Shown: one piece after another, positions 36,401-44,064 of the stretch
How the letters are laid out: every line of letters starts with the position of its first letter
How positions within the stretch are numbered: position 1 is the stretch's first letter
Assembly: GCF_964031085.1 (NCBI RefSeq)
Contig: NZ_OZ035001.1
Span: forward strand, 868,001 to 932,000
DNA: 64,000 nucleotides
Direction: 5' to 3'
From: Spiroplasma endosymbiont of Asaphidion curtum
Lineage (GTDB): Bacteria; Bacillota_I; Bacilli_A; Mycoplasmatales; Nriv7
Notes under the pieces: generated by a model
Database searches by the model: none
What the model saw: the letters and a program-made list of their open reading frames with translations, nothing else
What the model was told of the DNA's origin: nothing
Translations under genes and position numbers: made by a program

Positions 36401-36517
36401 TAATTTTAATAATAAATCATAATAACCTTTTTCTTTCATTTGTAAATCACTCTTTATTTCTTTTGTCGTAATAAGATTATATACTGCCTTAATTAAAAAT
36501 TTGTTATTTATTTGCAA
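33413..36517 (-). CDS. PLD nuclease-SF2 helicase fusion (DUF3427-like C terminus)
   Basis: 1034 residues in one frame across TGA codons. An N-terminal phospholipase-D-like domain has HIKAAIFKRK (HxK) and GSSNLT around residues 228-250. The helicase follows: IMATGTGKT (motif I), FDEAHH (motif II), GLTATPER (motif III), and in the second lobe NMFNEGIDVP and QQLGRGLRKT (motif VI). The last 350 residues match the layout of DUF3427-type proteins. The start is uncertain: TTG 36517 gives the longest frame, ATG 36439 (MKEKGYYDLL) has a weak site. Such HKD-nuclease/helicase fusions resemble restriction-type defence enzymes; that role is inferred. Confidence 0.82.
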
Positions 36518-36545
36518 ATAAAATAAATAACATTAACAAAACAAA

Positions 36546-36731
36546 ATACGATATGTTTAATAGACTTGGTGCATAACCCTCAATTTTATCTACTATTTTG
36601 ATAATATTATTTTCTAGATGAAGCACAAATATTAGATAAATATAAAGATGAAAGTGAATTTTATAGTTTGATAGGTGCAAAATGTTATAGTTATGTACCA
36701 AGTCTAATGAAATTTATTAAACATATCGTAT
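36546..36731. repeat. 16-bp perfect inverted repeat, interrupted by MITE-B
   Basis: Arms ATACGATATGTTTAAT (36546-36561) and ATTAAACATATCGTAT (36716-36731). With MITE-B and one AAT removed, the loop is only GAAATTT. On the minus strand it is followed by TTTTGTTTTGTT, so the original structure could terminate transcription after the 8-codon ORF. Confidence 0.8.
36562..36705. mobile_element. MITE-B copy 2
   Basis: 144 bp, flanked by AAT on both sides, inserted exactly at the loop edge of the inverted repeat. Confidence 0.9.
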
Positions 36732-36750: not shown

Positions 36751-36777
36751 TTAATTTTGAGTAATAACTTCAAACAT
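36751..36777 (-). CDS. 8-codon ORF MFEVITQN (microcin C-type precursor candidate)
   Basis: ATG to TAA encodes MFEVITQN. It starts five bases after the stop of the ThiF-like gene. A perfect AAAGGAG ribosome binding site (36788-36794) sits ten bases before the ATG, within the end of the ThiF-like gene. MccA peptides of the microcin C family are 7 or more residues long and end in Asn, the residue that the ThiF-like enzyme MccB adenylates. Here the peptide ends in Asn and is followed by a strong stem. In the known Escherichia coli operon mccA precedes mccB, whereas here it follows. It may instead be the start of a lost gene; no expression evidence. Confidence 0.4.
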   Translation of the reverse strand: MFEVITQN

Positions 36778-36782
36778 AACAA

Positions 36783-37149
36783 CTACACTCCTTTCTTGAC
36801 AAAGCAAAGTTTACACGAGTTAAATTTCTTTGTATTTTCAAAAGAAATATGATAACTTTCAGAATTAATAAACATTCGTTTTCCTAATGTTTCTATTCCT
36901 TTAGCATTAGCAAAATATCTTAAAATCTCATTTACTTGAATAGAACTAACTAAACTATTTAAAGGACCATAACTTGGTGATTTAAAATTTGAATTTCAAA
37001 ATTTAAGAGTTGGTTTTTTATCTTGTGGAACAATACAGTTTCAACATTTAGTTACTTCAGGAACTATTAACGGTCCAACAATACCATACTTATTAACATA
37101 CCCCGCAATACTATAAAGAATTTTATATTTAGTTGCGATTTCATTTATT
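36783..37149 (-). pseudogene. ThiF/MccB-like E1 enzyme, C-terminal fragment
   Basis: About 121 residues of an E1-like adenylyltransferase. AGYVNKYGIVGPLIVPEV is followed by the zinc pair CWNC, then SYGPLNSLVSSIQVNEILRY, ETLGKRMFIN and a second pair CKLC. This is the crossover and dimer region found in MccB, ThiF and azoline-biosynthesis E1 proteins. The ATP-binding N-terminal half is missing: MITE-B begins at 37150 and unrelated sequence lies beyond the insertions. In life, such enzymes adenylate a peptide C terminus. The short ORF directly downstream is a natural partner candidate. Confidence 0.72.
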
Positions 37150-37193
37150 AGACTTGGTACATAACCCTCAATTTTATCTACTATTTTGATAAT

Positions 37194-37755
37194 AGACTTC
37201 TTGCATTACTTATTTATTAAACAAAATTCCTATAAAATATATTTAAAATAGAAATTATAAGGAATTTAAGATTATGAAATTTGATAAATTTAATTTTATT
37301 AATGATAAAGAATTATTACGATTAACTGGAATAAAGCAAAGTACTTTTAATAAAATGTTAAATATTTTAAAAGAAGCTGAGTTAAAAAAGTTTAAAAGAG
37401 GTGGTAAAAATAATAAATTATCATTAGAAAATAGATTATTGATGACTTTATCATATTGACGAGAATATCGTACTTATTTTCATCTTGGTAAAAGTTTTGA
37501 TATTAGTGAAGCTAGTTGTTATCGAAATATCAAGTGAATTGAAGATATTTTAATCAAACATCCTGATTTTCAACAACTTGCTGGTAAAAAAGCATTAATA
37601 AATGATTATTTTAATGATAAAACAATTATTATTGATGCTACAGAAACACCCATTCAACGCCCAAAAAAAGACAAAAACAATCTTATTCAGGAAAAAAGAA
37701 AAAACACACTATTAAAACACAAGTAATTATTGAAAAAGAAAGCAAAATAATTATT
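37194..37755 (+). mobile_element. IS5-A, truncated copy in tandem
   Basis: 5' 562 bases of IS5-A up to GAAAGCAAAATAATTATT, ending where the next copy begins. Its missing 3' part is best explained by recombination with the 3' part of the next copy. Confidence 0.85.
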
Positions 37756-38839
37756 AGACTTCTTGCATTACTTATTTATTAAACAAAATTCCTATAAAAT
37801 ATATTTAAAATAGAAATTATAAGGAATTTAAGATTATGAAATTTGATAAATTTAATTTTATTAATGATAAAGAATTATTACGATTAACTGGAATAAAGCA
37901 AAGTACTTTTAATAAAATGTTAAATATTTTAAAAGAAGCTGAGTTAAAAAAGTTTAAAAGAGGTGGTAAAAATAATAAATTATCATTAGAAAATAGATTA
38001 TTGATGACTTTATCATATTGACGAGAATATCGTACTTATTTTCATCTTGGTAAAAGTTTTGATATTAGTGAAGCTAGTTGTTATCGAAATATCAAGTGAA
38101 TTGAAGATATTTTAATCAAACATCCTGATTTTCAACAACTTGCTGGTAAAAAAGCATTAATAAATGATTATTTTAATGATAAAACAATTATTATTGATGC
38201 TACAGAAACACCCATTCAACGCCCAAAAAAAGACAAAAACAATCTTATTCAGGAAAAAAGAAAAAACACACTATTAAAACACAAGTAATTATTGAAAAAG
38301 AAAGCAAAATAATTATTGCAACAAATTTTTCTCTCGGTAAAAAGCATGATTTTTGTTTATTTAAAGAATCAAAAATCCCAATTTTAAAAAATACTAAATT
38401 AATAGTTGATAATGGTTATCAAGGAATACAAAAAATTCATAGTAATGTTCTAATACCTAAGAAAAAAACAAAGAAAAACCCTTTAAATAAAGAACAAAAA
38501 CATAATAATAAATTAATTTCAAAAATGAGAATTATTATTGAAAATATTTTTGCTATTCTTAAAAAATTTAAAATTATTACTGAAAAATATCGTAATCGTA
38601 GAAAACGATTTAGTTTAAGATTTAATTTAATTGCTTCAATTTATAATTTGCAATTATAGATAACATAAAATATTTATTTAAAATTAAATTTAAATAATAA
38701 AATAATTTTTTGTTGTGTCAAAATTTACACATTTAATAAAATCCATAAGTATTAACCTAATAAAAGTTAGAAATTACTATATAGTATTTTTTATTTACAA
38801 ATAATTTGTAATTATTTTAATAAGTAATGCAAGAAGTCT
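37756..38839 (+). mobile_element. IS5-A, full length
   Basis: 1084 bp, both transposase frames and the A7 slip site present. Its right flank AAT pairs with the AAT left of the truncated copy at 37194, not with its own left flank. Confidence 0.9.
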
Positions 38840-38945
38840 AATATTATTTTCTAGATGAAGCACAAATATTAGATAAATATAAAGATGAAAGTGAATTTTA
38901 TAGTTTGGTAGGTGCAAAATGTTATAGTTATGTACCAAGTCTAAT

Positions 38946-39144
38946 ATTATTTTCTGGTAAGAAAAGGCAACATTCATTAAAATCGCAAATAATTATTGAT
39001 TTATTTAACAATAAAATTATTTCAGTAGATTTTTGTTATGGCAGTATTCATGATTATAAGTTATTTTTAAAATCAAATACACTTATAAATCCAAAATTAG
39101 AATTAATTGCTGATTCAGGATATCAAGGTTTGCAAAATGTTCAT
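38946..39144 (+). mobile_element. IS5-B internal fragment
   Basis: The second-frame segment from LFSGKKRQHSLK to ADSGYQGLQNVH. It has no ends. It joins a MITE-B on the left and the membrane-protein pseudogene on the right. Confidence 0.85.
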
Positions 39145-39436
39145 ATTGATTTATAATCAACATCAATAAGACTACCAATAAGAATAATGATTGATAGGGT
39201 TGCTATTAAAGCACCTCAAACTAATGATCAAATTCCAACTTTAACAGAAAAAGGAATCAATATATACTAACCCTAAAAAATAATAATAACGGTCACGAAA
39301 TTTTTAAACCATACATCACACCAGCATTCTCATCTTTACTAATTGCAATCGCAACTGCAAAAACCATAATTCAAATAGCACCAATCATCATTAATATTTT
39401 AGGAATTATTAGTCCTGTTGGATTTATTTTCGCCAT
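39145..39436 (-). pseudogene. Small multi-helix membrane protein, frameshifted
   Basis: Starts MAKINPTGLIIPKILMMIG and shows four hydrophobic segments, the last being SLVWGALIATLSIIILIGSL. A frameshift lies near 39270, where the reading moves from LLLFFRVSIYW to IPFSVKVGIW. The C terminus is cut by the IS5-B fragment. Family not recognised. Confidence 0.5.
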
Positions 39437-42503: not shown

Positions 42504-43408
42504 AGACTTGGTACATAACTATAACTAGCTTAATTCAAAATTATATATTCCTGAAATTAAGTTAAATCGTAATCCAAATCTTCTAATCTTATTGCGATAA
42601 CGATAAACTAGTATTTTAAATCTTTTTAATCTAGCAAAAACATGTTCAATGGCAATTCTAGCTTTACTTAAAAAGCTATTATATTCCTTTTTATCTGGAT
42701 TTAAAAGATTATTTTTACTCTTTTTAATTGGCAATAATGTATTTTTATGAACATTTTGCAAACCTTGATATCCTGAATCAGCAATTAATTCTAATTTTGG
42801 ATTTATAAGTGTATTTGATTTTAAAAATAACTTATAATCATGAATACTGCCATAACAAAAATCTACTGAAATAATTTTATTGTTAAATAAATCAATAATT
42901 ATTTGCGATTTTAATGAATGTTGCCTTTTCTTACCAGAAAATAATAATTTTAGTTTTTTTTAATTCTTTCAATTGGAATTTCTGTAGCATCAATTGCTAA
43001 TAAATTATTATTAGTACCCTTATTTTCCAATAATATCTTTTTGCCAGGTATATGAAAGTGACTATTTTTTATTAGAGTATTTTCAACTCAAAAGATATTA
43101 CGAATACAACCAACATGACTAATACTATATTTTTTGCAATAATACGATATGTACTATATTCTTTTCAGTATTCTAAAGTCATAAGTAATCTTTGCTCTAT
43201 TGATAATTTATTTGGTCTACCACCAATTTGTTTTTGTTTAGCTTCAGCTTCTTTTAAAATTTCTACCATTTTCATGAAAGTTTTATATTTTATGCCTATT
43301 AGACTATAAAATTCATTTTTGTCTTTGTATTTATCTAACATTTGTACTTCACCTAGGAAATAATATTATCAAAATAGTAGATAAAATTAAAGGTTATGTA
43401 CCAAGTCT
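42504..43408 (-). mobile_element. IS5-B, nearly full length, first frame mutated
   Basis: 905 bp. The second frame ends at 42525. In the first frame one T is missing near 43130 (compared with 32307), giving an extra frameshift, so this copy is probably inactive. It lies upstream of the permease gene. Confidence 0.88.
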
Positions 43409-43411
43409 AAT

Positions 43412-43434
43412 AAAACGGTAACTACCGTTTTATT
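43412..43434. terminator. Terminator of the 43449 lipoprotein gene
   Basis: AAAACGGTAACTACCGTTTT with A/T runs, just downstream of the lipoprotein stop on the minus strand. Confidence 0.75.
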
Positions 43435-44064
43435 TGCTAAATATGTATTTAATTAAGTTGTTCAAAATTAAATATTTTCATTCCTATTAATTTTTTCTCG
43501 TTATTATAAGAAAACTTTCAACTAAATTTAAATTCTTGCTTTTCTATCGCTATATTATAAAATACTAAACCCGCACTCGTATCATAAACAATTTCTGCTT
43601 TTGTATCCTGAATATAACTTAATTTATTAACAAAATCAGCAATATAATTACCATCTTCTTCTCAAATACTTTTATTATCAATAATGTTTTGCAAAACATT
43701 ATCTTTAAATCACTTATTACCAAGAATTTTAGTTAAATAATCTAAAACAGTTTCTTTTTCAATACTACTTTTATCATTAACACCTATTATCTTAATAAGT
43801 TTTTTAAGAAAATCCACTTTACTAATAGCAGTTTTGTCTTCTAATAAAGTTATAAAATCATCATACACTTTAGGTAATTTTAAAAGCAAGTGATCAATTA
43901 TTGCAATAAAATCATTATCAAGCTCATCACCATTCAAGTTTTGATAAAAGTTATTGAACTCTTTTTCGCCAACAGCACCTTGTAAAGCCATAAATATAGA
44001 ATTAAATGGTAAACTTGAATCAGATATTAATTTTATTAAAAAATCTACTTTTTGCTTTTTACTC

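What the first reader, a model, noticed from the sequence alone, without database searches (positions are those of the whole stretch)
36546..36731. Perfect 16-bp stem after the mini-ORF, split by a mobile element at the loop
Arms 36546-36561 and 36716-36731 pair perfectly with a 7-base loop once MITE-B and one AAT are removed. The stem followed by T-rich sequence on the minus strand looks like a terminator or a stabilising 3' end for a very short transcript. MITE-B inserted precisely at the loop edge, which may reflect a preference for extruded hairpins.
Basis: seen in the sequence. Interest (0 to 1): 0.5.

Follow-up and report, generated by a model that had tools for sequence, protein, structure and literature searches.

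The report
Split terminator of microcin-C-like gene remnant
A stem-loop that probably ended the messenger RNA of a tiny antibiotic-precursor gene in a Spiroplasma-like bacterium was split at its loop by a small mobile element; a related genome still carries the unsplit stem-loop with matching changes on both arms, so the stem is real, while the idea that the element seeks out hairpins is not supported.

Summary
Arms 36546-36561 and 36716-36731 pair over 16/16 bases with loop GAAATTT once a 144-bp element (36562-36705) and one AAT duplicate are removed. A same-genus genome (G003) carries the uninterrupted hairpin, with 2 of 16 pairs changed on both sides and both still paired. On the minus strand the stem lies 19 nt after an 8-codon mini-ORF (MFEVITQN, ending in Asn) with a strong Shine-Dalgarno, which starts 5 nt after the C-terminal remnant of an E1-like enzyme whose best solved match is MccB. 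Mini-ORF ending in Asn plus hairpin is the known mccA architecture; it recurs at mccB loci of E. coli, H. pylori, Borrelia and three other mollicutes. Best reading: the intrinsic terminator and 3' end of a microcin-C-like mccB-mccA transcript, with the usual mccA-hairpin-mccB order changed to mccB-mccA-hairpin. mccB is broken in both genomes, so this is a relic. The element is an ordinary IS5-like MITE with ANT duplications; apart from this site (1 of 27 clean copies) its targets show no more hairpin than control sites.

The parts
36716..36731 (-). 5' arm of the stem (in minus-strand transcript order), 19 nt after the mini-ORF stop
   Evidence: empty site in G003
36546..36561 (-). 3' arm of the stem (in minus-strand transcript order)
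36709..36715 (-). original 7-nt loop (GAAATTT on +), same in G003
36534..36545 (-). T-rich tail after the stem (TTTGTTTTGTTA)
36562..36705 (+). MITE-B: 144-bp non-autonomous element with ends AGACTTGGTRCATAAC, a deletion derivative of an IS5-like element; 2 differences from the consensus of 41 copies
36559..36561 (.). target-site duplicate AAT, left copy
36706..36708 (.). target-site duplicate AAT, right copy
36751..36777 (-). mini-ORF MFEVITQN + stop TAA, candidate mccA (peptide precursor ending in Asn)
36788..36793 (-). Shine-Dalgarno AAGGAG, 10 nt before the mini-ORF ATG
36783..37145 (-). C-terminal 120 codons of an mccB-like (ThiF/E1) gene; 5' part replaced by nested insertion sequences and not found elsewhere in the genome
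36502..36532 (-). second, weaker hairpin (12 bp, loop 7) after the first; in G003 an IS30-like element sits in its loop

Best explanation
The stem is the intrinsic terminator and 3' end of a microcin-C-like mccB-mccA transcript on the minus strand. The mini-ORF MFEVITQN would be the MccA precursor: eight residues, Met first, Asn last, strong Shine-Dalgarno. RNA polymerase leaving the mini-ORF makes the 16-bp stem and then a U-rich run and releases, and the stem protects the message end so the peptide can be made in excess (reported for E. coli mccA by others, inferred here). In this genome a 144-bp IS5-like MITE then landed at the loop edge by ordinary 3-bp (ANT) target duplication. Folding predicts that the arms still pair, because the element's own inverted ends continue the stem, so termination may have survived. 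The mccB gene is broken in both genomes, so the locus is a relic. Shown: stem, empty site, double-sided changes, element boundaries and duplication, MccB relatedness, recurring architecture. Inferred: termination, RNA protection, peptide modification.
For: Empty hairpin in G003, 14 pairs unchanged, 2 changed on both sides, 0 broken; flanking divergence about 2.4% (10 of about 420), under which two independent double Watson-Crick changes have P about 5e-6. Stem energies -16.1 and -20.4 kcal/mol. Both mccB pieces match MccB best among solved structures: P0001 E 4.5e-8, G003 N-piece E 1.8e-22. tblastn of P0001 hits 74 of 72,556 plasmid records: Escherichia/Salmonella, Helicobacter, Borrelia/Borreliella, Lactiplantibacillus, Priestia; of 6 fetched, 4 show an MFS transporter next to the enzyme. 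ATG mini-ORFs of 5-13 codons ending in Asn with Shine-Dalgarno score >=6: 1 in both strands of the 64-kb window, this one. Mini-ORF plus hairpin 6-37 nt later at E. coli (MRTGNAN, the known mccA), H. pylori, two Borrelia and mollicute loci L014, L017, L018. With the MITE present the outer stem still forms in the predicted fold.
Against: The mini-ORF lies after mccB, not before it. The simple terminator scan found no site here, though the arms are split there, so its 3-8 nt loop limit could not be met. The shuffle control on two sequences is weak: 131 of 500 reach the observed score. Concerted changes in a palindrome can also arise by template switching without selection. The mini-ORF is 27/27 identical in G003, but only about 0.6 differences were expected, so this says little; its Shine-Dalgarno is weaker in G003 (score 4). 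No exporter gene was seen beside it and no S66 immunity gene in any of 5 genus genomes. By the same scan, 2 of 6 named mccB loci (L. plantarum, Priestia) showed no such mini-ORF.
Confidence: 0.68

Rival explanations
1. The stem is just the ordinary terminator of the mccB-like gene; the 8-codon ORF is an accident.
For: AT-rich perfect hairpins after gene ends are common in the window: 19 of 73 stop-to-stop frames of >=120 codons have a stem >=8 within 90 nt of their end, 5 with a T-rich tail. The usual mccA position is upstream of mccB.
Against: The mini-ORF is the only one in both strands of the window with Shine-Dalgarno score >=6 and an Asn end, and it lies 5 nt after an MccB remnant. Published criteria accept such ORFs within 300 bp (PMC6495379, passages).
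Confidence: 0.24
2. The palindrome is kept not as RNA but as a DNA site (cruciform, protein-binding or recombination site), which also attracted the mobile element.
For: Perfect 16-bp symmetry; MITE-B at the loop edge here and an IS30-like element in the loop of the neighbouring hairpin in G003.
Against: Unique in the genome, so not a repeated site. 26 other clean MITE-B sites show no hairpin excess. IS30-like sites listed and read by eye showed no consistent hairpin. Two pairs differ between genomes, so the sequence is not held constant.
Confidence: 0.05
3. The double-sided changes come from template-switch repair of quasi-palindromes, so they do not show selection for the stem (this can hold whether or not the stem terminates).
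For: The hairpin differs at 4 of 32 arm positions against about 2.4% in the flanks, always in matched pairs, which such repair would also give.
Against: Only two genomes, so not testable; the stem also sits where mccA hairpins lie elsewhere.
Confidence: 0.25

Closest known systems
mccA-mccB intergenic terminator of the E. coli microcin C operon (and its H. pylori counterpart)
   Same: Asn-ending mini-ORF with strong Shine-Dalgarno, short gap, hairpin, same strand as an MccB enzyme; E. coli gap 24 nt and 10-bp stem, H. pylori gap 11 nt and 10-bp stem, here gap 19 nt and 16-bp stem.
   Different: Here the order is mccB-mccA-hairpin, the stem is AT-rich, the precursor has 8 codons, and the hairpin cannot divide mccA from mccB expression as it does in E. 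coli.
   Same: 8- and 7-codon mini-ORFs (MFVGLMMN, MYGILRN) followed by 14- and 10-bp stems.
   Different: There the hairpin precedes mccB and mccB is an open frame of full length; L017 has an mccF-like gene upstream.
IS5-group MITE (ISL2-type target ANT; the type name is recalled)
   Same: 144 bp, IS-derived ends, 3-bp ANT duplication in 25 of 27 clean copies, start of the parent transposase kept.
   Different: Nothing distinctive except its landing place.

Membership tests
Microcin C-type (McC) biosynthetic locus | MccB-like ThiF/E1 adenylyltransferase | tested here: met
   both pieces match MccB best among solved structures; gene broken. No phylogenetic tree against MoeB/ThiF was built; NCBIfam gave only hits under their cut-offs, for ThiF-type families.
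Microcin C-type (McC) biosynthetic locus | short precursor ORF, Met...Asn, strong Shine-Dalgarno, within 300 bp, same strand (criteria in PMC6495379) | tested here: met
   MFEVITQN, SD AAGGAG, 5 nt from the mccB remnant; 'preferentially upstream' is not met.
Microcin C-type (McC) biosynthetic locus | exporter (MccC) or immunity gene nearby | tested here: not met
   No McC-type transporter among ORFs next to the mccB remnant here or beside the G003 copy (by eye); no S66 peptidase in 5 of 5 genus genomes. Both loci are full of insertion sequences, so loss is possible.
mccA-type terminator hairpin | hairpin shortly after the precursor ORF | tested here: met
mccA-type terminator hairpin | ribosome-controlled termination giving an abundant short transcript | not testable with these tools
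   Needs RNA data.
Intrinsic terminator | stem followed at once by a U-rich run on the coding strand | tested here: met
   TTTGTTTTGTTA, 9 T of 12, directly after the stem.
IS5-group MITE | terminal inverted repeats of an IS in the genome, no intact transposase, short duplication | tested here: met
   41 copies of exactly 144 bp examined, 27 with clean 3-bp duplication, 25 of those ANT; related 905-bp element at 42504-43408 has the same ends; transposase fragment matches HTH_Tnp_4. The IS5/ISL2 family name itself is recalled, not tested.

The most novel reading that the evidence does not exclude
An arthropod-type Spiroplasma lineage once made a peptide-nucleotide antibiotic from an MccB-first operon, in which an 8-codon mccA sits at the extreme 3' end and is expressed in excess by a 3' stem that stabilises the operon end, a mirror image of the E. 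coli arrangement; the lineage then lost it through insertion sequences.
Probability: 0.35. Interest if true: 0.6.

Novelty: new variant of a known kind. Interest (0 to 1): 0.42.

Why it matters
Microcin-C-like loci in mollicutes did not appear in the papers searched ('microcin C' + Spiroplasma; 'microcin C' + Mollicutes: 2 listings each, none on the subject by title and abstract start). A dead locus with a conserved stem after a C-terminal-Asn mini-ORF, with intact-looking cousins in other mollicutes, gives a way to test whether the mccA hairpin is a general part of such systems and whether it works when mccA comes last. It also suggests how an insertion into a terminator loop could be nearly neutral, because the element's own ends extend the stem.

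Tried and rejected
Hairpin preference of MITE-B: 41 copies, of which 27 had clean duplications and distinct flanks and were scored; rejected as a general rule. The other 14 were dropped before that count. Hairpin preference of the IS30-like element: 20 stretches fetched; with 8 starts in the window and 2 in G003, 31 starts were listed, 24 with both ends; no consistent hairpin seen by eye, not scored formally. Rfam: only tRNAs in the window. Close relatives in genome contigs: 46 pattern matches, none confirmed. Second copy of the mccB 5' part in the window's genome: none. Literature on IS30 and terminators: no paper with all five terms. Two McC papers searched for Spiroplasma, Mycoplasma and Mollicutes: none of the words found.

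Full report
What was checked. The window reads by table 4 (TGA = Trp) and has a tRNA with anticodon TCA, which the tool labels SeC and which in such bacteria reads Trp (the Trp reading is recalled); it lies in a 1.31-Mb genome. I infer a Spiroplasma-like mollicute; a link to the S. ixodetis type is recall only.

Is the stem more than chance? After removing the element and one AAT, the window has 8 perfect stems >=12 bp with loop 3-12; eight shuffles had 0-3, and none had a stem >=16. The stronger evidence is comparative. G003 is the only other one of 5 genus genomes with the neighbouring gene (2 of 5 with the window's own), and it has the uninterrupted site. It differs at stem positions 8 (A-T to G-C) and 11 (T-A to G-C), with no unpaired change. 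Divergence in the aligned flank is about 2.4%. With independent substitutions two such matched double changes have P about 5e-6. The tool's own two-sequence shuffle is weak: 131 of 500 reach the observed value. Template switching within a palindrome could also produce matched changes.

What it belongs to. On the minus strand, 37145-36783 encodes 120 residues of a ThiF/E1-type protein (Pfam ThiF 27.9 bits, just under the 28.1 cut-off). Its best solved matches are MccB, E 4.5e-8. In G003 the gene is split by an IS30-type element and its 5' end is cut by another; the N-terminal piece matches MccB at E 1.8e-22, ahead of ubiquitin E1 (about 1e-17) and ThiF (3e-12). tblastn of the C-terminal piece against plasmids hits 74 of 72,556 records, from Escherichia/Salmonella, Helicobacter, Borrelia/Borreliella, Lactiplantibacillus and Priestia. 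Of 6 such loci fetched, 4 have an annotated MFS transporter next to the enzyme, and 2 (B. miyamotoi, Priestia) do not. In the window's genome the 5' part of the gene is absent.

The mini-ORF. ATG TTT GAA GTT ATT ACT CAA AAT TAA (36777-36751) follows AAGGAG by 10 nt and the mccB stop by 5 nt. Among ATG-started ORFs of 5-13 codons ending in Asn in both strands of the window, 78 exist, 2 have a Shine-Dalgarno score >=4 and 1 has >=6: this one. The peptide pattern occurs in 2 of 320 genomes of the order, G000 and G003. PMC6495379 (section 6 read; [quoted passage not shown] All but 'upstream' hold here.

The hairpin in that setting. The same paper's passages describe a terminator between mccA and mccB and ribosome-induced termination; the primary paper (NAR 2014) is not held and is known to me by citation and recall. 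The same layout was looked for at 6 named and 6 unnamed mollicute loci. A mini-ORF with SD score >=4 was found at 4 of 6 named loci (E. coli, H. pylori, two Borrelia; not L. plantarum or Priestia) and at 4 of 6 mollicute loci (L014, L016, L017, L018; L015 has one with score 3; L019 none with score >=4). A stem of 8 or more pairs (G-U allowed) followed in all of these eight except L016, where only 7 pairs at the enzyme start were found; the Borrelia stems are weak, 12 and 8 pairs with 11-nt loops. L017 is the clearest: mccF-like gene, MFVGLMMN, 10-nt gap, 14-bp stem, Shine-Dalgarno, mccB. So the window's stem is best read as the mccA-type terminator, here at the end of an mccB-mccA pair.

The element. 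MITE-B is 144 bp in all 41 copies counted (they were selected for that length; other spacings seen were 188, 459 and 905); the copy here has 2 differences from their consensus. Its end sequence occurs 132 + 127 times in the genome. Duplications are ANT in 25 of 27 clean copies. Its interior starts like the transposase of the related element family. Its targets are not hairpins in general. Folding of the split RNA still pairs the outer arms, with the element's ends continuing the stem; total predicted energy -59.5 kcal/mol for 277 nt against -32.0 for the 130-nt empty version. That is a prediction only.

Verdict. Real, conserved hairpin; most likely terminator/3' end of a microcin-C-like mccA at the end of an mccB remnant; insertion at the loop is ordinary or coincidental. 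The novelty lies in the host group and gene order, not in the hairpin.

Noticed in passing
L014 787-2778, L016 790-2787, L015 508-2442 (-): Three unnamed mollicute genomes encode a single protein that joins an MccB-like half to an MccF-like (S66 peptidase) half: antibiotic maker and self-immunity in one chain (L014: MccF E 8.1e-64, MccB E 1.8e-32; L015 and L016 judged by eye). Upstream mini-ORFs look alike: MIPSTWAVNVFN, MPISWFNLTLN, MPIEWSVINFN.
   Followed up: partly
L017 44-1869: Compact mccF-like gene, mccA candidate MFVGLMMN, 14-bp hairpin, mccB in another mollicute, next to a GAPDH-like gene.
   Followed up: partly
window 36502-36532 and L013 6142-7218: In G003 an IS30-like element sits in the loop of the second small hairpin of the same intergenic stretch; two different elements thus split two neighbouring hairpins in two genomes.
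   Followed up: partly
window 43409-43435: A 905-bp element of the MITE-B family (42504-43408) ends directly beside an 11-bp gene-end hairpin (AATAAAACGGTAGTTACCGTTTTATT on the minus strand).
   Followed up: no
window 37146-39160: Nested insertions: one IS copy (MKFDKFNFIND transposase) with a second copy inside it, within a MITE-B/IS-B remnant, replace the 5' part of mccB.
   Followed up: no
L061 1236-1259, L064 1200-1223: Borrelia linear plasmids carry mccA-like mini-ORFs (MRGKTLN, MSGKTLN), not in the feature table shown, before ThiF-family genes; in B. miyamotoi the enzyme is annotated as two pieces.
   Followed up: no
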